NCBI GenBank assembly: GCA_018057825.1
Contig: JAGPCY010000014.1
Coordinates: forward strand, 124,001 to 188,000
DNA length: 64,000 nt
Origin: Kofleriaceae bacterium
GTDB lineage: Bacteria; Myxococcota_A; Polyangia; Haliangiales; Haliangiaceae
Direction: 5' to 3'
Positions within the stretch are counted from its first letter, which is position 1, and each line of letters starts with the position of its first letter. Below are positions 45,466 through 56,224 of this stretch, in pieces. The position numbers and the translations under genes are program-made. Below the pieces are notes generated by a model. The model saw only the letters and a program-made list of their open reading frames with translations, was not told the origin of the DNA and did no database searches.

Positions 45466-46380
45466 CTAGGTGACCTCCGAGCGCAACGACAGGGGGATGA
45501 GGTGGCCGGCGGCCAGCCCGGTGACGACCGTCGCGGTGGCCGCGGCCAGGTCGCCGTCGAGGCTGACCAGCAGCTCGACCACGGTCAGCGGAAACAGCGC
45601 GGCCCGGCGCGCCAGCGACGCGGGCGGTGCGGTCGGCGGCGCCGCGGCGAGCGCGAGGGTGGCGTCGGCGTGTTGGCCCAGCGCGGCCCGGCAGTCGTCG
45701 AGGGCGACCAGCGCGGCCAGGAGCGACAGCCCGGGGGCGCTCGGCCCGGCCAGCGCCGCCGTGGCCTCGACGATGAAGTTGCCGCGGGCGGCCAGCGCCA
45801 CCCGCTCGAGCGCCGCCTGGCCGTGGTGGTCCCGCCAGCGCGCGTCGACGATCGCGCCACCGGCGCAGGTGACGCTGGCGCCGAGCTGCGACAGCGTCAG
45901 CCGGCTCGCGCGCCGGGTCGCCAGCAAGGTCTGGAGCAGCTCGTCGAGGGAGACGCCGTCGCCACCGAGGGTTCCCGCCAGGGCCACCGCGCCGGTCGCG
46001 ACCGCCGGGCGGCGGCGCAGCACCGCGCGGACGCGGGCCAGCAGCTCGGCGGGGTTGGTGTGCTTGGCGACGAAGTCATCGGCGCCGAGCTCGAGCGCGC
46101 GGACGCGGACATGGGGCGAGGTCACGCCCGACAGGAACACCACCGGGATCGCAGCCAGGTCGGGGCTGCGCCGCATCTCGTCGAACACCGCGACGCCGTC
46201 GAGCTCCGGCATCTGCACGTCGAGGAGCACCACCGCGGGTGGGGTCCGCCGCATCACCGCCAGGGCCTCGCGGCCATCGGCGGCGTGGCGGACCGCGAAG
46301 CCGCCCAGGGTCAGGTAGTCGGCGACCAGCTCGCGGTGCAGGTCATCGTCGTCGACGAGCAGGACCTCGGGGCCGGTCAT
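45466..46380 (-). CDS. Response regulator: receiver + DUF4388/PATAN-like domain
   Basis: 304 aa. Receiver 1-125 (LLVDDDDLH, phospho-Asp in VVLLDVQMPEL, Lys in DFVAKHTN). From ~140, a DUF4388-like region (LAGTLGGDGVSLDELLQTLL, LTLSQLGASVTCAGGAIVDA, RGNFIVEA). Followed by an Ala-rich C-terminus. ATG overlaps the kinase stop as ATGA, so it is the most likely direct phosphotransfer partner of that kinase. Confidence 0.88.
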   Translation of the reverse strand: MTGPEVLLVDDDDLHRELVADYLTLGGFAVRHAADGREALAVMRRTPPAVVLLDVQMPELDGVAVFDEMRRSPDLAAIPVVFLSGVTSPHVRVRALELGADDFVAKHTNPAELLARVRAVLRRRPAVATGAVALAGTLGGDGVSLDELLQTLLATRRASRLTLSQLGASVTCAGGAIVDARWRDHHGQAALERVALAARGNFIVEATAALAGPSAPGLSLLAALVALDDCRAALGQHADATLALAAAPPTAPPASLARRAALFPLTVVELLVSLDGDLAAATATVVTGLAAGHLIPLSLRSEVT

Positions 46381-49300
46381 GTCGCGCCTCGGACGGTGTG
46401 GCGCAAGAGCGCGCGGATCTCGTCGGGCAGGACCGGCGGGGCCAGGTGGACATCGAGCAGCGCCGGGCCCCCGGGGCCGTGCTCGTCATCGAGCAGGACC
46501 TGCGTCGGGCGGGGCCGGGCCCCGGTGGTCTCGAGGTGGGCGATCACGTCGGCGTCGAGGTGGGCGCGCGCGACCACGACCATCTGCGGCTCGAGGACCC
46601 GCTGGAGGCGGCGCAGCTCGGGCAGGGTGTCGACCCGGCGCACGACCGCGCCGGCCGCCGCGAGCTGCTCGAGCACCTCGAGGGCCTCGGCGGTCTGGCC
46701 GGCCAGCATGACCACCACCGGCTGGCCCAGGCGCGGGTCGTCGCGGTCCATCGGCAGCTCGACCACGAACCGGCAGCCGCCGCCCGGGCGGTTCTCGGCC
46801 CACACCCGCCCGCGGTGGAGCTCGACCAAGCTGCGCACGATCGACAGGCCCAGGCCTTGGCCGCTGCCGCGCTTGCTGCCGCCGCCTTTGCGCTCCGTCT
46901 GGTAGTAGCGCTCGAAGATGGTCGCGAGGTGCGCGGGCGGGACACCCGGGCCGCGGTCGGCGACCTCGATCCGGATCCGCGCCGGGTCGGGCGCCGCGAC
47001 CGACAGCTCGACCGCGGTGCCGTCCGCGGCGAACTTGCACGCGTTGGCGAGCAGGTTGCCGATCACCTGCTCGAGTCGCAGCGGATCGGCGGCCACGGGG
47101 GCCAAGCGCGGCGCCGTGACCTCGACCGAGACCCGACCGGCGGCGGCGGCGCGGGCCTGCTCGGCGGCCTCGAGCACGAGCTGGTCGAGGTGGATCGGCA
47201 CGCGGTCGAGGGCCAACGCGCCCGACTCGATCTTCTCGAGGTCGAGCAGGTCGTTGATGAACGTGGTCAGGTTGCGCGCGGTGTCGCCGATCCGATCGAG
47301 GTAGGCGGTGACCCGCTCGCGCGGCAGGCGGTCGAGGTTCTTGCCCAGGAGTTCGGCCACGCCGACGATCGCCGCCAGCGGGCTCTTCAGGTCGTGGGAG
47401 GTGATCGCGACCATGTCGGTCTTGAACTGATTGAGGCGCTCGAGCTCGGCGTTCTTGCGCACCAGCTCGGCGTCGCGGCGCTCGAGCTCGGCCTCGGCGC
47501 GCTTGCGCTCGCTGATGTCCTGGTGGTGGGCGATGTAGCCGACGCACGCGCCGCTGGCGTCGCGCACCGCGCTGATCCGCATGAGCACGTGCAGCTCGCG
47601 ACCGTCGCGTCGGCGATCGATCAGCTCGCCCGACCACGAGCCGATCGCGGGGTCGGTGATCGCGCCCCACATCTGACGGTAGAAGGCCTCGGGCTGGCGG
47701 CCCGACTTGAGCATGCGGGTGTGCTGACCGATCACCTCGCGCAGCGAGTAGCCGAACAGGTCGAGGAAGGCGCGGTTGACGTCGAGGATGCGGCCGGTCG
47801 GATCGGCGAACACGACGCCCTCCGAGCTGGCCAGGAAGTTCCGGTAGAAGAGCGCCAGCCGCTCCATGGTCTCGAGGCGGTTGGCGGCGGCCCGCGCGAG
47901 CAGCGGGTGTTGACCGTCGCGCGACGGCAGCGCGACCACCTCGACCGGACGTCCGGCGGCGGTGAACAGGTACGCGGTCGCGGTCTGGCCGGCGGCCGCG
48001 GCGGTCAGCAGCCCGCGCAGCTCGGTGGCGCTGGCCGGGGTCAGCGTCGCGGCCAGATCGGGCTCGGGTGCGCAGCCCAGGAGCTCGGTCAGCGCCTGGC
48101 GCCCGGCGGTCGCCGCGGTGGTCGCGTCGAGGGCGATCGCCTGCCACGGCTCGAGATCGACCAGCAGCGCGCCGCGGCCGACCGGTCGGGGCCCGGCGGT
48201 CGTGGTCGCGCTCAGGGCGGACTCGGCGGTGAAGAAGCTCGCCCAGGCGTGGGGGGCCGGCGCCTCGGGCGGCACCGCGGCGCAGCGATCGAGGGTGGCC
48301 AGGGCCAGCTCGGCCAGGTGTGGATCGAGGATCGGGCCGACCTGCTCGCGCAGCCGCTCGAGCGCCTGGGGATGCGACGCCGGACCGGTCGGCGACTGGT
48401 AGCCGGCGATCGCGTCGTAGGCGTCGGCGTAGGCCAAGATCCGCGCGACCAGCGGGATCTGCTCGCCACCCAGGCCGCGCGGCACGCCGCCGCCGTCCCA
48501 GCGCGCGCGCACCGCGGCGATGGCGTGGGCCAGGTGCTCGAGGCTGGGCAGGCCGCCGACGATCTCGACGGCGCGGAGCTGCGCGCGCCCGATCGCCTCG
48601 AGGTCGCCGGCCCACAACAGCTCGAGCTGGCGGCGCGGCACCGCCACTGCGCCGACGCCGTGGAGCAGGCCGGCCCAGGCCACGTCCCACGGATCGATCA
48701 CGTCGGCGCCCAGCGCGCTCGCGATCTGAAAGCCGTAGCGGGCGACCCGCGCGGAGTGGCCACGGGTGCGGTGGTCCCGGCCGTCGATCAAGCGCGCCAG
48801 CGCCAGCGCCAGCGGCGTGATCAGCCCACCGTGGTCGAGGCCGGTCAGGCCGGGGTAGCCCGGCTGCGGCGTGTCGTGGGCCGACCTCATCGCGCTGGCG
48901 TCGAACAAGGCGTCGAGCAGGCCGGGGTCAGCGGCGATCACGGCGCGCGCAGCCTCGAGGGCGGTGCCCGGGGCGGCGCCGCGGGCTGCGGTCTGGAGCG
49001 CGCGGCTGGCGGCGGCGCGCCGATCGCGGGGGCTGGCCATCCGCAGGGCCTGCTCGAGGCTGTCGGCCAGCCCGATCACGGTGGCGCCGATCGGCAGCTC
49101 GCCGCCGGTGCGCCCGAACGGGAAGCCGCCGCCGTCGAGGCGCTCGTGGTGTAGCTCGATCAGCGACCGGAGCGGCGCCAGGAGCGGCGTGGCCTCGACC
49201 CAGTCGGCGCCCAGCCGCGGGTGGGCCTGGGCCGACGGCTCGGCGAAGCCGCGCTCGGCGTGGACCGTGATGTGCTCGTCGAGCCCGCTGCCGCCGACGT

Positions 49301-49499
49301 CGTGGAGCAGGGCGGCGTAGTAGATCGCCGCGGCCTCGGGCAGCCCCATCGTGGTCGCGATCCGCCGCGCCAGGAGCGCGACCCGACCGGCGTGGCTCGC
49401 CGGCCAGCCGTCCTCGGCGTCGAGGACCTCGGCCATGGTCCGGACCAGGCCGTGGAACACGGCCGGCGCGGCGGCGGGATCGACTGGGCGGACCCGCAT
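46377..49499 (-). CDS. HD-GYP x2 + PAS + histidine kinase sensor protein
   Basis: 1040 aa, no membrane helices. First HD-GYP-like block ~40-170 (HAGRVALLARRIATTMGLPE, LLHDVGGSGLDEH, HHERLDGGGFPFG). Second block ~225-420 (HSARVARYGFQIASALG, ARWDGGGVPRGLGGEQIPLV), where the HD pair reads LLHGVGA, i.e. Asp replaced by Gly. Then a spacer, a PAS ~590-700 (ILDVNRAFLDLFGYSLREVI), a coiled linker, HisKA with H in ITSHDLKSPLAAI, and HATPase_c (N box NLLANACKFA, G boxes DRGPGVPP and GSGQGLGLSIV). C-terminal ~110 aa are receiver-like without a clear phospho-Asp. It would link c-di-GMP hydrolysis or sensing with phosphorelay. Confidence 0.85.
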   Translation of the reverse strand: MRVRPVDPAAAPAVFHGLVRTMAEVLDAEDGWPASHAGRVALLARRIATTMGLPEAAAIYYAALLHDVGGSGLDEHITVHAERGFAEPSAQAHPRLGADWVEATPLLAPLRSLIELHHERLDGGGFPFGRTGGELPIGATVIGLADSLEQALRMASPRDRRAAASRALQTAARGAAPGTALEAARAVIAADPGLLDALFDASAMRSAHDTPQPGYPGLTGLDHGGLITPLALALARLIDGRDHRTRGHSARVARYGFQIASALGADVIDPWDVAWAGLLHGVGAVAVPRRQLELLWAGDLEAIGRAQLRAVEIVGGLPSLEHLAHAIAAVRARWDGGGVPRGLGGEQIPLVARILAYADAYDAIAGYQSPTGPASHPQALERLREQVGPILDPHLAELALATLDRCAAVPPEAPAPHAWASFFTAESALSATTTAGPRPVGRGALLVDLEPWQAIALDATTAATAGRQALTELLGCAPEPDLAATLTPASATELRGLLTAAAAGQTATAYLFTAAGRPVEVVALPSRDGQHPLLARAAANRLETMERLALFYRNFLASSEGVVFADPTGRILDVNRAFLDLFGYSLREVIGQHTRMLKSGRQPEAFYRQMWGAITDPAIGSWSGELIDRRRDGRELHVLMRISAVRDASGACVGYIAHHQDISERKRAEAELERRDAELVRKNAELERLNQFKTDMVAITSHDLKSPLAAIVGVAELLGKNLDRLPRERVTAYLDRIGDTARNLTTFINDLLDLEKIESGALALDRVPIHLDQLVLEAAEQARAAAAGRVSVEVTAPRLAPVAADPLRLEQVIGNLLANACKFAADGTAVELSVAAPDPARIRIEVADRGPGVPPAHLATIFERYYQTERKGGGSKRGSGQGLGLSIVRSLVELHRGRVWAENRPGGGCRFVVELPMDRDDPRLGQPVVVMLAGQTAEALEVLEQLAAAGAVVRRVDTLPELRRLQRVLEPQMVVVARAHLDADVIAHLETTGARPRPTQVLLDDEHGPGGPALLDVHLAPPVLPDEIRALLRHTVRGAT

Positions 49500-49502
49500 C
49501 GC

Positions 49503-50234
49503 TCAGCCGGGGATGAGGTCGACGCCGCACGCGAGCTGCTCGGCCCAGGCGAGGAACTGCGCGACCATCGGCTTACCGCGGTACAGCGCGCCGTGCTGCG
49601 GCGCCAGGATCTCGACGTCGAGCGTACGGATCCGTCCGACCCACTCGCGCAGCGCCCGGTTCGACGCCATGTAGCGGCGGTGGAAGCCCTCGGTGTAGCG
49701 ACGGTGGGCCTCGAAGTCGGTGACCTCGGTGTAGTCCATGCCGACCGACGCGCCGATGTCCCCCGAGTACAGGATCTTCGCGACCGGATCGTAGACGTGA
49801 TAGTTGCCCGGCGAGTGCAGGAAGTGAGCGGGGATGATCTCGATCGGCTGGCCGCCCAGCTCGACGGTCATGCCGTCGTCGGGGATGCCGGTCATGCGCT
49901 TGACCGCGTAGTCGTCGATGCCGAAGTGCGGGATGAAGCGCATCCACAGCGATGGCGCCAGCGCGGCGGCGTCGGTCGCCATCAGCCAGCCGTTGGCGGC
50001 CGCGACGATGTCGGGATCCTGATGCGAGAAGAACAGGTAGCGCAGGCTGGCCGGCGCCATCGCCCCCGAGGACTCGGCCAACAGGCGCGAGAACACCTTG
50101 TGCCCGCCGGGATCGAGCAGCATCGCCTCCTTGCCGTGGACGATCAGGTGCTGGTTGGCCTGGATCATCTCGCCCGAGCACAGCTCGTGGAACATCAGGT
50201 TGCGGTGACCGGCGTGGTCGTAGAGCGTGTTCAT
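49503..50234 (-). CDS. ODP-type di-iron metallo-beta-lactamase-fold protein (oxygen/NO sensor-like)
   Basis: 243 aa MBL-fold protein of the flavodiiron/ODP kind. Likely metal ligands: FSHQDPD (H-x-D-x-D in place of the hydrolase HxHxDH), HFLHSPGN, YSGDIG and APQHG. No flavodoxin or rubredoxin domain is fused. Such oxygen-binding di-iron proteins bind O2 as sensors, e.g. in Treponema chemotaxis. Located between a Roadblock gene (17 bases before) and the HD-GYP/kinase gene (3 bases after), suggesting it feeds an O2 or NO signal to the kinase. Hydrolase function cannot be excluded. Confidence 0.82.
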   Translation of the reverse strand: MNTLYDHAGHRNLMFHELCSGEMIQANQHLIVHGKEAMLLDPGGHKVFSRLLAESSGAMAPASLRYLFFSHQDPDIVAAANGWLMATDAAALAPSLWMRFIPHFGIDDYAVKRMTGIPDDGMTVELGGQPIEIIPAHFLHSPGNYHVYDPVAKILYSGDIGASVGMDYTEVTDFEAHRRYTEGFHRRYMASNRALREWVGRIRTLDVEILAPQHGALYRGKPMVAQFLAWAEQLACGVDLIPG

Positions 50235-50251: not shown

Positions 50252-50620
50252 TTACTGGAGGACCGCGGCGACCTCGTCGACGGTCTGCTTGAGTTCGTAG
50301 AAGATGAGCCCGAGCTTGGCTTCCTTGCGGACCAGCGCGAGCAAGACCGCGTGGGCGCCGGCGCCGGTGATGAGGGCGTAACCGTCGCTGCCCTTGACCA
50401 GGACCTGCTCCATCCGGCCGCGGCGCAGCTCGAAGCCGGTGCGCGCCCCGATCGACATCAGGGCCGCGCTCATGGCCGCGATCCGGCCCTCCTCGAGGCC
50501 CTGCGGCAACGAGCTGGCGATGATCAAGCCATCCTCGGACACCACGGCGCAGGCCTCGACGTCGCCGGTGGCGGCTTGCAGGTTGCGCAGCGCGCGGTTC
50601 AGGGTCTCGGTGCGGGACAT
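50252..50620 (-). CDS. Roadblock/LC7 family protein
   Basis: 122 aa, single Roadblock domain (ACAVVSEDGLIIASSLPQGL, AAMSAALMSIGARTGFELRR, GYALITGAGAHAVLLALVRK). First gene of the seven-gene operon. Start ATG at 50620 fits the domain; the longer frame upstream runs into repeats. Typical MglB/bacterial Roadblock length. Upstream carries a tandem 16-bp repeat and a palindrome that could regulate the operon. Confidence 0.88.
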   Translation of the reverse strand: MSRTETLNRALRNLQAATGDVEACAVVSEDGLIIASSLPQGLEEGRIAAMSAALMSIGARTGFELRRGRMEQVLVKGSDGYALITGAGAHAVLLALVRKEAKLGLIFYELKQTVDEVAAVLQ

Positions 50621-50652
50621 CGGTGCCTCGTTCGTGGGGGCGCGCGAGGGCC

Positions 50653-50684
50653 GCGCGTGGGAGGCACCGCGCGTGGGAGGCACC
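50653..50684. promoter_or_regulatory. Tandem 16-bp repeat upstream of the sensory operon
   Basis: GCGCGTGGGAGGCACC repeated exactly in tandem (50653-50668, 50669-50684), 33-64 bases before the Roadblock start. It could be a tandem operator or a slippage duplication. The 10-bp palindrome GGTGATCACC at 50701-50710 lies a little further upstream. Confidence 0.5.
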
Positions 50685-50765: not shown

Positions 50766-52757
50766 TCAGGTCGGCCGCGCCGCGAACTGCGGGTGATCGG
50801 CGAGCGCGGCGTCGATGGCCGCGCGGGCGCGGGCGTCGGTGGCGTCGGCGGGATAGGCGGCGGTCGAGCGCGCCCGGCGGTCGAGCCAGGTGGCGTCGAG
50901 GAGCGCGGCGTCGCGCGGCGGCGCGCCGGCGGCCGGCCACAGCGCGCGGGTGGTCTCGGCCTTGGCGCCGGTGGCGGCGCCGCGCGCGACCCAGAACCCG
51001 GCGGCCAGGAGCGCGGTGCGGACCGCGGTCGACCGCGAGTAGGTGACCAGCTCGCACGGCCGCGCGAGCGCCGCGGCGACGCGCGCGAAGGTGGCGCGGG
51101 TCCACAGCGCGGCGTCGACCTTGGGCGAGAACGGATCCCACCAGATCACGTCGGGTGACGGCGCCGCGGTCAGCGCGTCGAGGGCGTCGCCGGCGTGGAG
51201 GGTCCAGGTCAGGCGCGCGCGCTGGTAGCGTCCGGTCGCGGCCAGGCGGTGTGGGGCCTCGTGGCGGAGGTGCGGGAAGTCGCGCGGGTGGGCCAGCGCC
51301 AGGCGCAGCGGATCGAGATCGCGCTCGAAGCTGACCAGCTCGATCGGCTGATCGCTCGGGGCCGCGGCGGCGCAGGCGGAGACCAGCGCCATCGCGTTGT
51401 GAGCGGCGCCCAGGCCGACGTCCCACACCACGACCGGCGCGCCGTCGTCGAGCGCGCGGGCGATCGCCGGCGGCTGCGCCAGGTACAGCGCGCGGGCCTC
51501 GTCGGCCGGCGCCGGCCCGACGTGCATGACCTCGCCCGAGGCCAGGTGGCGGATGCGCGCCGGTGGACCGTCGACGATCTCGTAGCCGCCGCGGCGACGT
51601 CGACGGGCCGCCTTGCCGACGCCGGCGCGCGGGCCCGGCGGGTGATCGGCGTCGTCGGCGACCAGCGCCTCGCGCTCGCGGCGGTACAGCGCGGCGAACT
51701 CGCCGGCGGCGAGCGCGGCGCGGATGCGGGTCATGAGCGCGACGTAGCTGCGCAGGTTGTGGATCGCGACGAGCTGCCAGCCGACCGGCTCGGCGGTCTT
51801 CACCAGGTGGTGGAGGTACGACCGCGGCAAGGCGCACGCCGGACAGCCGCAGGTCGCCTCGAGCGGACGATCGTCGTCGGCGTAGGCGGCGCGGCGCAGC
51901 TCGAGCCGCCCGGCGGCGGTGAAGGCCACGCCCTGTTGCGCCAGCGCGGTCGGCAAGATGCAGTCGAACAGATCGACGCCGCGGTGGACCGCCTCGAGCA
52001 GATCGATCGGCCGGCCGACGCCCATCAGGTAGCGCGGGCGATCGACCGGCAGCCGCGCCGCCACCAGCTCGGTCAGATCCTCGCGCTCGGCGGCGGTCTC
52101 ACCGACCGCCAGACCACCGATCGCGTAGCCGTCGAAGCCGCCCAGCTCGACCAGGGCGTCGGCGCTGGTGCGCCGCAGGTCGGGGAACCGCCCGCCTTGG
52201 ACGATCGCGAACAGCCGGCGATCGGGCCTCGACCGCGCCGCCAGCGACCGCCGGGCCCAGGCCAGAGTCCGCGTCCACGCCGCCTCGGTCACCGCCCGCG
52301 ACGAGGTGGTCGCGACGCATTGATCGAGCACCATCATCACCGCGCTGCCGATCACCTCCTGCGCGGCGATCGCCGACTCCGGGGTGAGCGCGATCACCGG
52401 ACCGTCGGGGTGAGGGCGGAAGCGCGCGCCGACGTCGTCGATCGTGCACGCGTGGCCCAGCGAGTAGACCTGGAACCCGCCGGAGTCGGTGAGCACCGCG
52501 CCCGACCAGCCGATCCACCGCGCCAGGCCGCCGACCCGCCGCAGGACCTCGAGGCCAGGCCGCTGGATCAGGTGGTAGGTGTTGGCGAGGAGAAGCCCTA
52601 CGCCGAGCGCCGCGACCTCGGCCGGCGGCACCGCGCGCACCGAGCCGCGGGTCCCAACCGGCATGAACGCCGGGGTGGCGACGGTGACCTCGCCCAGGGT
52701 CAAGACGCCGAGCCGGGCCCCGCTGTCAGCGGCCTGCGCCGCGACGGTGAAGCTCAC
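50766..52757 (-). CDS. tgt: tRNA-guanine transglycosylase fused to an MnmC-like methyltransferase domain
   Basis: 663 aa, against ~375 for ordinary Tgt. Residues 1-360 are Tgt: D91 in VLTDSGGFQVYSL, GGLAVGE, nucleophile D265 in DLFDCILPT, zinc ligands C303, C305, C308 and H333. The Arg normally after the PT is Ala here. Residues ~400-640 resemble the DUF752/MnmC SAM-dependent methyltransferase (VVWDVGLGAAHNAMAL, VSFERDLDPLRLAL, DVIWWDPFSPKVDAALW, TYSRSTAVRTALLAAGFWV). One chain may therefore join queuosine insertion at G34 with U34 mnm5-type methylation, or the tail may act on another base. GTG overlaps the upstream lipoprotein stop. Confidence 0.88.
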   Translation of the reverse strand: MSFTVAAQAADSGARLGVLTLGEVTVATPAFMPVGTRGSVRAVPPAEVAALGVGLLLANTYHLIQRPGLEVLRRVGGLARWIGWSGAVLTDSGGFQVYSLGHACTIDDVGARFRPHPDGPVIALTPESAIAAQEVIGSAVMMVLDQCVATTSSRAVTEAAWTRTLAWARRSLAARSRPDRRLFAIVQGGRFPDLRRTSADALVELGGFDGYAIGGLAVGETAAEREDLTELVAARLPVDRPRYLMGVGRPIDLLEAVHRGVDLFDCILPTALAQQGVAFTAAGRLELRRAAYADDDRPLEATCGCPACALPRSYLHHLVKTAEPVGWQLVAIHNLRSYVALMTRIRAALAAGEFAALYRREREALVADDADHPPGPRAGVGKAARRRRRGGYEIVDGPPARIRHLASGEVMHVGPAPADEARALYLAQPPAIARALDDGAPVVVWDVGLGAAHNAMALVSACAAAAPSDQPIELVSFERDLDPLRLALAHPRDFPHLRHEAPHRLAATGRYQRARLTWTLHAGDALDALTAAPSPDVIWWDPFSPKVDAALWTRATFARVAAALARPCELVTYSRSTAVRTALLAAGFWVARGAATGAKAETTRALWPAAGAPPRDAALLDATWLDRRARSTAAYPADATDARARAAIDAALADHPQFAARPT

Positions 52758-54106
52758 CGGCGCCGCGGCGTGGACGCGCGCTGCCGCCGCACGCTGTCGA
52801 ACAGGAGCTGCGACTGCTCGATCACGACCCGGCCGGTGAGCTGACCGGCCAGCGCGCCCAGCGACCCGACGTTGAAGGCGTCGGCGCGGACCGCGTCATA
52901 GCCGCCGGGCACCTTGGCGGTGGTCACCGACTCGACGAAGACGAAGTCCTCGAACGCCGGGTTGAGCGGCGCGCCGTCGCCGGGCAACACCGGCAGGCGG
53001 ACGCTGGCGCCGTCGTGAGGCGCGACGATCCGCCACCGCCAGGTGGTCTTCAGGCTCGAGCGTCCGATCTCGATCTGGGCCATGGTCAGGTCAGGGCTCG
53101 CGCCGTCGGCGGTCTGGGTCCAGCTCACGGTCGAGTTCACCTGATCGAAGCCCGGACTGTCGACGAAGACCGGCAGGAACAGCCCGTTGGCGTCGAGCGT
53201 GTAGGCCGCGGGCGCCGGCGCCTCGAGGATCTGGCTGTAGCTCGGCCCGCCGCTCTCGCGGGTGCCGATGGCGACGCCGATCGCGCCGGTCACCGGCGGC
53301 ACCACCAGGCTGGCGATCGCGGTCTGGCTGACGACGTCGACGGTGTTCTCGACGCTCCACACCCGCCCGCGGTTGGTGTACAGCTCGCGCGTCAGCCGGA
53401 ACACGCCGAGCCCGCCCGGCAGGTTGGTGTAGGTCTGGTCGACCGCCGGCGCGTCGGCGTAGCTGCCGTTCAGCGTCACGGCCACGCCGTCGGCGACCGC
53501 GACGTCGCGGGCCAGGAAGGCGCGGACCGGGCCGCCATCGCCGTTGTCGCTGGAGATCAGGAAGTCGGTGGTGGCGCCGCAGTCGAACAGCGTGACGTCC
53601 AGGGTCACGGTCGAGCCCGGCTCGGTGAACAGCTCGGTGGTGCCGCACGGCGAGGTCGCCAGGTAGTGACCGCGGGTGCCGTTGGCCGGCACGGTCAGCG
53701 CGAAGGACATCGAGGCGCTGGGCGGCGGCACCGTCAGGCGCAGGGTGTCGCCGGGCTTGACCCCGGCGAAGGTGGTGACGGTCGGTCGATCCTGGGGCGC
53801 CTCGCCGCCGAGCACCGCGGTCGCGTAGCCGCCTTCGCCCATCACCGCGCTGGCGACGCCGCTGGTGGTGGCGGTGGCCGAGACCAAGGTGCCGTCGGCG
53901 TTCTGGAAGAACACCGGCACGCCCGACACCGGGGTCCCGCCCGAGGTCACCAGCACGGTCACCATCGGCGGCGGCGGATCCGAGCCCTGGGTGGCGTCGA
54001 TGGTCGAGCTGTCGATGATCGAGGCGTCGACGATCGCCGCCGGGTCGTCGCCGCAGGCGACGAGCGCGGTCAGAGAGGCGCAGGCAAAGGCGAAGGGAAG
54101 GCGCAT
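52754..54106 (-). CDS. Lipoprotein with Ig-like/bacterial-surface beta domains, unknown function
   Basis: 450 aa. ATG at 54106 gives signal FACASLTALVAC (lipobox LVAC), then an Asp/Ser/Thr-rich linker (VDASIIDSSTIDATQGSD). Residues ~45-110 look like a carboxypeptidase-regulatory or Big-like beta domain (VTVLVTSGGTPVSGVPVFFQ). The remainder is beta-rich with no known motif. Its stop overlaps the tgt-fusion start; the coupling seems positional, not functional. Tract D lies directly upstream. Confidence 0.78.
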   Translation of the reverse strand: MRLPFAFACASLTALVACGDDPAAIVDASIIDSSTIDATQGSDPPPPMVTVLVTSGGTPVSGVPVFFQNADGTLVSATATTSGVASAVMGEGGYATAVLGGEAPQDRPTVTTFAGVKPGDTLRLTVPPPSASMSFALTVPANGTRGHYLATSPCGTTELFTEPGSTVTLDVTLFDCGATTDFLISSDNGDGGPVRAFLARDVAVADGVAVTLNGSYADAPAVDQTYTNLPGGLGVFRLTRELYTNRGRVWSVENTVDVVSQTAIASLVVPPVTGAIGVAIGTRESGGPSYSQILEAPAPAAYTLDANGLFLPVFVDSPGFDQVNSTVSWTQTADGASPDLTMAQIEIGRSSLKTTWRWRIVAPHDGASVRLPVLPGDGAPLNPAFEDFVFVESVTTAKVPGGYDAVRADAFNVGSLGALAGQLTGRVVIEQSQLLFDSVRRQRASTPRRR

Positions 54107-54164
54107 CCCGCCATTGTAGGCCCAGCGCGCGGCCATTTCGATCGTCGTGTGCGCGAACCGGAAG

Positions 54165-55270: not shown

Positions 55271-56137
55271 CTACTGGCAGACGTGGCCGGTGCCCGGGCC
55301 ACACGGCGGCTCGACCCAGTAGGCCCAGAACAGGGCGTTCAGATCACTGGCGCTCGCCGTCGTGGTCCAGCCGTAGGAGTAGAGCGACCGGCCATCGCGG
55401 GCGCGGATCTTCACGTGGTCGTAGTTGAGCGAACCGTCGTTGTTCCGCCCGAAAGCGTCGTAGTGCATGACCGAGTCGAAGTCGTAGCCGGTGGCGTGCC
55501 AGGCCGAGGCGCCGAACACCTGCTCGACAGTGCCATCGACGATCACGTACTGGTCGCGATCGTTGCGGGCGTGCTCGTGATGCAGGCCGAGGATGTGGCC
55601 CCACTCGTGGACGTAGTCGTGGGTGGTGCAGCTCGAGCCGGCGAAGTACATGACCGGCGGCTGGAAGCCCAGCGAGGCGGCGCACACCCACTCGTAGCCC
55701 GGGAAGTAGGCGCCGGTGATCGTGACGTAGTTGGCCTGGGTGGTGCGCGGGTAGAACCGGAAGCCGGCCTGGGTCCACGGGCCGGTCGCCGCCACGACCT
55801 GATCGCGGACGTGCTGCGGCACCGCCGGCTCGAACTGGTAGTAGATGCGCTTGTTCGGCCACAGCGAGTTGGCGATCGCGGCGGTGGCCTCTGGGCGGGT
55901 GGGCTCGGCCGGGATCAAGACGTCGCCGTCGATCAGCAGGTGATCGCCGATCCGGTAGCCGGTGCCGGCGGTGATGCGGCCGTCGGGGAGTTGATGGCGG
56001 TAGGCCTCGCGCGGGAGGTCGGCGAAGGGGCCGGCGTCGTCGGCCTCGGGCGCGCCAGGTTGCTCGGCGCAGCCGGCGAGCGCGAGCGACGTGACGACGG
56101 CGATGGTGCGGAGCAAGTCGCGGGCAGAGTGATGCAT
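55271..56137 (-). CDS. Astacin-like (M12A) metalloprotease lipoprotein
   Basis: 288 aa. Signal with lipobox LAGC (VVTSLALAGC). A propeptide-like ~75 residues is followed by the zinc site HEWGHILGLHHEHARNDRD (HExxHxxGxxH with the astacin E-H-x-R-x-D-R-D continuation) and Met-turn YDFDSVMHYDAFG. Ends GPGTGHVCQ with Cys pair. A secreted, anchored endopeptidase, consistent with a predatory or saprophytic lifestyle. Confidence 0.93.
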   Translation of the reverse strand: MHHSARDLLRTIAVVTSLALAGCAEQPGAPEADDAGPFADLPREAYRHQLPDGRITAGTGYRIGDHLLIDGDVLIPAEPTRPEATAAIANSLWPNKRIYYQFEPAVPQHVRDQVVAATGPWTQAGFRFYPRTTQANYVTITGAYFPGYEWVCAASLGFQPPVMYFAGSSCTTHDYVHEWGHILGLHHEHARNDRDQYVIVDGTVEQVFGASAWHATGYDFDSVMHYDAFGRNNDGSLNYDHVKIRARDGRSLYSYGWTTTASASDLNALFWAYWVEPPCGPGTGHVCQ

Positions 56138-56224
56138 GGCGCGAGCGTCGCGCGCGGCGCCCGGGGATGGCCGCGATCGTGACCACCTGTCACTCACCCG
56201 GGCGGGAGGAGAGATCGCGCCGCG

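What the first reader, a model, noticed from the sequence alone, without database searches (positions are those of the whole stretch)
50766..52757. Tgt fused to an MnmC-type methyltransferase domain
Tgt exchanges G34 for a queuosine precursor; MnmC-like domains methylate a U34 modification. Both are wobble-base enzymes normally on separate proteins. The Tgt half also lacks the Arg that normally follows the Pro-Thr near the nucleophile.
Basis: partly seen in the sequence, partly recalled or inferred. Interest (0 to 1): 0.6.

Follow-up and report, generated by a model that had tools for sequence, protein, structure and literature searches.

The report
Tgt paralogue fused to MnmC2-like methyltransferase
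A second, altered copy of the enzyme that swaps a guanine for a queuosine precursor in tRNA is joined, by fusion or by overlapping genes, to a methyltransferase, which suggests that some bacteria make an undescribed methylated version of that precursor in RNA.

Summary
Window 50766-52757 (-) is one uninterrupted 663-aa ORF: a full bacterial Tgt (residues 13-360) followed by a DUF752/MnmC2-type methyltransferase (about 387-663). It is not a chimera: the fusion recurs in 14 of 35 genomes of the order and at 29 loci in a second phylum. The genome also has an ordinary queA-linked tgt.

The Tgt half belongs to a distinct clade ("TgtX"), split from ordinary Tgt at 100/99 support even with the loop motif removed. 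All 67 TgtX keep the catalytic aspartates, zinc site and Val233 of the preQ1 pocket; none keeps Arg289 and one keeps Arg286 (14 of 14 ordinary Tgt keep both). In six other loci the two activities are separate genes, and in all six the methyltransferase start overlaps the end of tgtX. Eight of 29 fusion genomes also carry a bona fide MnmC, so the domain is not simply the cell's MnmC2.

Best reading: TgtX inserts preQ1 outside the usual U-G-U context and the methyltransferase N-methylates its aminomethyl group (MnmC2 chemistry), giving N-methyl-preQ1. Architecture, conservation and coupling are shown; substrate and product are inferred. No report of this pair turned up in the papers searched.

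The parts
50766..52757 (-). Whole fusion gene, 663 aa, GTG start (TgtX plus methyltransferase)
   Evidence: single open frame; orthologues over the full length in 14 of 35 genomes of the order
51678..52721 (-). TGT domain (residues 13-360)
   Evidence: PF01702 E 5.9e-123; over the TIGR00430 cut-off; Foldseek top hits Z. mobilis TGT
51963..51965 (-). Codon of Asp265, equivalent of the nucleophile Asp280 of Z. mobilis TGT
   Evidence: invariant in 67 of 67 TgtX and 14 of 14 ordinary Tgt
51930..51953 (-). Altered loop PTALAQQG (residues 269-276) in place of PTRNARNG; both Arg lost
   Evidence: R286 kept in 1 of 67 and R289 in 0 of 67 TgtX, both in 14 of 14 ordinary Tgt
50769..51599 (-). MnmC2-like SAM methyltransferase domain (residues 387-663)
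   Evidence: PF05430 at 510-606; AF2 model pLDDT 91.1; MnmC2 top in Foldseek and VIA-align, Z 23.6
51135..51137 (-). Codon of Asp541, equivalent of E. coli MnmC Asp-178 (proposed general base)
   Evidence: 58 of 58 in the subfamily; role from passages of PMC3648344

Best explanation
The gene encodes a bifunctional RNA-modifying enzyme. Shown here: a Tgt paralogue (TgtX) with all catalytic residues in place that coexists with the ordinary Tgt, has a preQ1-type base pocket and has lost both Arg of the loop after the nucleophile; it is joined to an MnmC2-fold methyltransferase with the proposed catalytic Asp and SAM-binding Glu in place; and the same two activities form overlapping gene pairs in other families of the phylum. 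Inferred: the Tgt half exchanges a guanine for preQ1 in a tRNA (or tRNA-like loop) outside the U33-G34-U35 set served by the ordinary Tgt. The MnmC2-like half, whose relatives N-methylate the aminomethyl group of nm5U34, then N-methylates the chemically equivalent aminomethyl group of preQ1. The product would be 7-(methylaminomethyl)-7-deazaguanosine (N-methyl-preQ1), which is diverted from the QueA route to queuosine.
For: Fusion conserved in 14 of 35 genomes of the order and at 29 of 30 returned loci of a second phylum. All six unfused methyltransferases of this branch found in the own phylum sit directly behind a TgtX gene with overlapping start. 67 of 67 TgtX keep D102, D156, Q203, G230, D280, V233 and Zn ligands, 66 of 67 keep C158; C158 and V233 go with preQ1 rather than queuine (PMC3660597, passages). 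Methyltransferase keeps D541 in 58 of 58. A real MnmC coexists in 8 of 29 fusion genomes. QueF, the maker of preQ1, is present in this genome.
Against: No substrate was measured. Some TgtX lack any attached methyltransferase (11 solo rows inside the fused clade), and in the second phylum 0 of 24 solo methyltransferases of the wider subfamily lie next to a TGT gene. In this genome the fusion is the only DUF752 and MnmM is absent in 35 of 35 genomes of the order, so a U34 role is not excluded. The U35 contact of the lost Arg pair is recalled, not confirmed in a held paper. 14 of 67 TgtX rows in the trees come from the own family, so counts are not independent events.
Confidence: 0.5

Rival explanations
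1. The C-terminal domain is a functional MnmC2 that methylates nm5U34; the fused Tgt paralogue only supplies anticodon-loop binding or co-expression of two wobble enzymes.
For: DUF752 family and MnmC2 fold with its catalytic Asp and Glu; only DUF752 in this genome; no MnmM in the order.
Against: Misses the MnmC2 equivalog cut-off; separate branch from 12 MnmC2-like proteins at support 99; coexists with a full-size MnmC in 8 of 29 fusion genomes; unfused copies in the own phylum are always coupled to TgtX; close relatives without the fusion have no DUF752 at all.
Confidence: 0.22
2. The pair acts on one RNA but the methyl group goes elsewhere: another atom of the inserted 7-deazaguanine or a neighbouring nucleotide of the same loop.
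For: Coupling of the two activities fits any shared RNA target.
Against: The only known chemistry of the family is N-methylation of an aminomethyl group on a wobble base (PMC3648344, passages), which preQ1 offers directly.
Confidence: 0.17
3. TgtX modifies DNA, like DpdA of phages and genomic islands.
For: Methylated preQ1 has, as I recall, been reported in phage DNA; the paper is not held.
Against: The Tgt half is close to tRNA Tgt (over the TIGR00430 cut-off); no dpd-like family among eight annotated neighbours; no relative confirmed in viral contigs.
Confidence: 0.05
4. Artefact: frameshift or assembly join between two genes.
For: None for this locus.
Against: Same architecture in many separate assemblies and in two phyla.
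Confidence: 0.01

Closest known systems
Bacterial tRNA-guanine transglycosylase, Tgt (TIGR00430; Z. mobilis TGT structures)
   Same: Fold, catalytic Asp pair, zinc site, preQ1-type pocket
   Different: Second paralogue beside the ordinary Tgt; loop PTRxARNG replaced by PT[AQSH]xAQxG-like sequences; fused or coupled to a methyltransferase
MnmC2 / DUF752 methyltransferase (A. aeolicus 3VYW, N-terminal half of E. coli MnmC)
   Same: Fold and catalytic Asp and Glu
   Different: Separate branch, under the equivalog cut-off, partner is TgtX instead of MnmC1 or none
Bifunctional MnmC (MnmC2 plus MnmC1 oxidase)
   Same: A DUF752 domain fused to another wobble-base enzyme
   Different: Partner is a transglycosylase acting on G, not an FAD oxidase acting on cmnm5U; domain order reversed relative to MnmC (methyltransferase C-terminal here)
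Phage DNA 7-deazaguanine systems (DpdA and a proposed preQ1 methylase; recalled, paper not held)
   Same: Would share the predicted idea of a methylated preQ1
   Different: DNA target and phage genes; no homology was tested here

Membership tests
Bacterial Tgt (TIGR00430) | Profile score over the equivalog cut-off | tested here: met
   381.8 against 306.75 bits
Bacterial Tgt (TIGR00430) | Catalytic Asp102 and Asp280, Asp156, Gln203, Gly230 and Cys3His zinc site | tested here: met
   67 of 67 TgtX including this protein
Bacterial Tgt (TIGR00430) | preQ1-type pocket (Cys158, Val233) | tested here: met
   both present here; 66 and 67 of 67 TgtX
Bacterial Tgt (TIGR00430) | Arg286 and Arg289 of the loop after the nucleophile, kept in all ordinary Tgt sampled (role in reading U35 recalled) | tested here: not met
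   A and Q here; ordinary Tgt 14 of 14 have both
Bacterial Tgt (TIGR00430) | Exchange of G34 in GUN tRNAs for preQ1 | not testable with these tools
   needs an assay
MnmC2 (NF033855) | Score over the equivalog cut-off | tested here: not met
   71.7 against 136 bits
MnmC2 (NF033855) | DUF752 domain and MnmC2 fold | tested here: met
   PF05430 63.5 bits against 22; Z 23.6 to 3VYW
MnmC2 (NF033855) | Catalytic Asp-178 and SAM-binding Glu-101 | tested here: met
   D541 58 of 58; E478 Glu in 55 and Asp in 3 of 58; roles from passages of PMC3648344
MnmC2 (NF033855) | Methylates nm5U34 | not testable with these tools
   needs an assay
Bifunctional MnmC | C-terminal FAD oxidase MnmC1 | tested here: not met
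   only TGT and Methyltransf_30 in the Pfam scan
DpdA DNA transglycosylase | DpdA-type sequence and dpd gene context | not tested
   no DpdA profile was run; eight annotated neighbours show nothing dpd-like

The most novel reading that the evidence does not exclude
TgtX plus its methyltransferase form a second 7-deazaguanine pathway in bacterial RNA: one enzyme installs preQ1 in a tRNA set that ordinary Tgt does not recognise and caps it as N-methyl-preQ1, an undescribed tRNA nucleoside diverted from queuosine.
Probability: 0.45. Interest if true: 0.85.

Novelty: new variant of a known kind. Interest (0 to 1): 0.66.

Why it matters
If right, it predicts a new tRNA nucleoside, a Tgt with altered RNA recognition (of use also for Tgt-based RNA labelling), and a new substrate for the MnmC2 methyltransferase family. 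It also warns that automatic annotation as plain Tgt (it passes that cut-off) hides a second enzyme found in two phyla. The reading is directly testable by LC-MS of tRNA.

Tried and rejected
Artefact by frameshift or join: rejected by recurrence. Dead Tgt of the QTRT2 kind: rejected, catalytic residues 67 of 67. TgtX as the only Tgt: rejected, 13 of the 14 fusion genomes of the order show a second match in the ordinary Tgt score range (G020, rated 86% complete, shows none). Conserved gene neighbourhood as a clue: the all-against-all comparison was dominated by antisense frames and its output was cut, so nothing was drawn from it; a direct search found the upstream gene only in the same genus. 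QueA and QueF co-occurrence: both nearly universal in the second phylum, no discrimination. MnmM as another U34 methylase: 0 of 35 in the order, which weakens my own argument for this genome. Solo methyltransferases of the second phylum linked to TgtX: 0 of 24 loci, against a universal link. Plasmid and phage collections: only ordinary Tgt-range matches covering at most 52% of the query in the rows listed; viral contigs: none confirmed. Literature: nine searches answered, no paper on a Tgt-DUF752 fusion or on N-methyl-preQ1 in tRNA among the listings; the library lacks most subscription papers. The role of R286 and R289 in reading U35 could not be confirmed in held papers. Spermidine synthases at Z 13-17 show the general fold and were not taken as function.

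Full report
WHAT IS THERE. The ORF at 50766-52757 on the minus strand is a single 663-aa frame. Pfam sees a complete TGT domain at residues 13-360 (E 5.9e-123) and Methyltransf_30/DUF752 at 510-606 (E 2.3e-17). NCBIfam places the first half over the Tgt cut-off (381.8 against 306.75) and the second half under the MnmC2 cut-off (71.7 against 136). AlphaFold2 on 13 orthologues gave mean pLDDT 87.9, and Z. mobilis TGT entries fill the top of the Foldseek list (target TM 0.92 for the first). The C-terminal part alone gave pLDDT 91.1, with A. aeolicus MnmC2 (3VYW) on top in Foldseek and Z 23.6 over 236 residues in VIA-align; the E. coli MnmC entries follow at 19.9 and spermidine synthases at 17.2 and below. 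The pTM of the full model is 0.58, so the mutual placement of the two halves is not to be trusted.

A SECOND TGT. The genome has two TGT matches. The other follows a QueA-like ORF directly and has the usual PTRNARNG (the QueA label is by my reading of that ORF). The fusion is the only PF05430 match in this genome. QueF is present here and in 30 of 35 genomes of the order.

NOT A CHIMERA. A genome-contig scan returned 13 relatives; three are full-length fusions, L004 and L005 (record titles Myxococcales and Deltaproteobacteria) and L014 (title Opitutae). L004 and L005 are the same contigs as loci later found in G025 and G018, so they add no genome to the next count. In the order, 14 of 35 genomes have the fusion over essentially the whole query, and 13 of those 14 also show a second match in the ordinary Tgt range; G020, rated 86% complete, does not. 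I read the loop motif of only some of those ordinary copies. In the phylum, 23 of 187 genomes have an MT match at E 1e-8 or better: six with a fusion including this one, four with unfused MTs of the same branch (five loci), and 13 with weak MnmC2-like matches of 41-59 bits. In the phylum of G039 (Bdellovibrionota by the titles of L006-L011), 96 of 144 genomes have an MT match; of the 30 loci returned, 29 carry both domains in one frame and one (L117) does not.

PAIRED GENES WHERE NOT FUSED. The six unfused MTs of this branch found in the own phylum (G032, G177, G114, G187 and two in G142) all lie directly downstream of a TgtX gene. In five the MT start codon overlaps the tgtX stop codon in an ATGA or GTGA, and in the sixth the start lies five bases before the stop. 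This coupling, independent of the fusion, is the strongest sign that the two activities serve one product.

HISTORY. An 81-row Tgt tree splits 14 ordinary Tgt from 67 TgtX at SH-aLRT 100; inside TgtX, six operon members plus one solo protein (L058) part from 49 fused and 11 solo proteins. A second tree of 67 rows, with the loop motif cut out and further rows left out (the three long branches L013, L050 and L136, and other rows that I dropped by hand mostly as near-copies), repeats this: ordinary against TgtX 100/99, operon clade with L058 100/98, fused clade with its nested solo members 92/92. The simplest reading is a gene pair, one fusion, then repeated loss of the MT domain; the root is not tested, so this is inference. 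The MT tree parts fused, operon and solo MTs of this subfamily from 12 MnmC2-like proteins at 99; that tree carries a long-branch warning, and four partial or broken rows were left out of it. I call the Tgt branch TgtX only for convenience.

RESIDUES. Over 67 TgtX, the equivalents of D102, D156, Q203, G230, D280, V233 and the four Zn ligands (Z. mobilis numbering) are invariant, and C158 is kept in 66. PMC3660597 (abstract and passages seen) ties C158 and V233 to the use of preQ1 rather than queuine. R286 remains in one and R289 in none, against 14 of 14 in ordinary Tgt. I recall that these Arg contact U35 in the Z. mobilis RNA complex; no held paper that I opened states it, so altered RNA specificity is inference. 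In the MT, D541 is invariant in 58 of 58 rows and E478 is Glu in 55 and Asp in 3; PMC3648344 (passages seen) proposes the equivalent Asp-178 as the base and Glu-101 as the SAM ribose anchor.

IS IT JUST MnmC2? On the same 144 genomes, 21 have an MnmC2 match over the equivalog cut-off. Eight of the 29 fusion genomes are among them (G331, G347, G267, G370, G244, G306, G273, G278), with the match in frames of 628-677 aa, the size of bifunctional MnmC. The other 21 fusion genomes have no match over the cut-off; some have weaker stand-alone ones (for instance G299 at 119 and G351 at 115 bits). The fused domains themselves score 85 bits or less in the rows listed. Completeness and contamination of these genomes are not told, so single cases could be binning errors. 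In the own order, 18 of 35 genomes have a PF05430 match over cut-off: 16 in the fusion or in pieces of it, one in the G032 gene pair, one in a stand-alone gene of G017. Against me: MnmM is absent in 35 of 35, so in this genome the fusion stays the only known candidate for U34 methylation.

MECHANISM. MnmC2 methylates the primary amine of a 5-aminomethyl group on the wobble uridine. preQ1, the base that a Tgt with this pocket should insert, carries a like aminomethyl group at position 7. The economical model is that TgtX exchanges G for preQ1 in an RNA set different from that of the ordinary Tgt and that the attached or coupled MT caps the amine as N-methyl-preQ1. Shown: architecture, residues, coupling, coexistence with ordinary Tgt and, in eight genomes, with MnmC. 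Inferred: base, RNA target, methyl acceptor.

LIMITS. TgtX without an attached MT and MTs of the wider subfamily without TgtX exist, so the pair is frequent, not obligatory: of 24 solo MT loci in the second phylum none had a TGT gene in the fetched flanks. Names of G-handle genomes are not told. Nine literature searches of the held open-access library listed no description of this pair or of N-methyl-preQ1 in tRNA; of most listed papers I saw the listing only, and that is not proof of absence.

Noticed in passing
L143, L144, L146, L147, L148, L149, L150: A group of solo methyltransferases of this subfamily in the second phylum sits next to, and mostly divergent from, what looks by eye like leucyl-tRNA synthetase; their substrate is open and they may be working MnmC2 proteins.
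   Followed up: partly
G350:C302:6036-7166 (L149): A solo methyltransferase of the subfamily lies about 100 bp from a convergent queF gene. One case only.
   Followed up: partly
G041:C10:1915-2910 and G259:C21:10762-11772: Two fusion-bearing genomes have a second, divergent QueA-like match (148 and 151 bits) besides the usual one.
   Followed up: no
G142:C3:1560510 and G142:C2:57156 (L097, L098): One genome carries two copies of the tgtX-methyltransferase gene pair on different contigs.
   Followed up: no
L053 (G018:C417): A genome that has the fusion also has a solo TgtX ending in what looks like the linker of a lost methyltransferase domain; Tgt works as a dimer, so a mixed dimer is possible.
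   Followed up: no
L058 (G008:C62): A solo TgtX with PTRLAWQG, keeping the first Arg and losing the second: an intermediate loop that groups with the operon clade.
   Followed up: partly
window 52754-54136 (-): Upstream 460-aa protein with no Pfam match whose stop overlaps the fusion's GTG start; a homologue lies at the same place only in the same-genus relative.
   Followed up: partly
window 46377-49499, 49503-50234, 50252-50683, 55271-56197 (-): Neighbours: an HD/PAS histidine kinase, an ODP-type metallo-beta-lactamase-fold protein, a roadblock/LC7 protein and an astacin-family peptidase.
   Followed up: no
phage records OR844993, OR845897, OR846599, OR847189, OR848199: Unannotated records named as phages of several hosts match ordinary Tgt; they may contain bacterial host DNA.
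   Followed up: no
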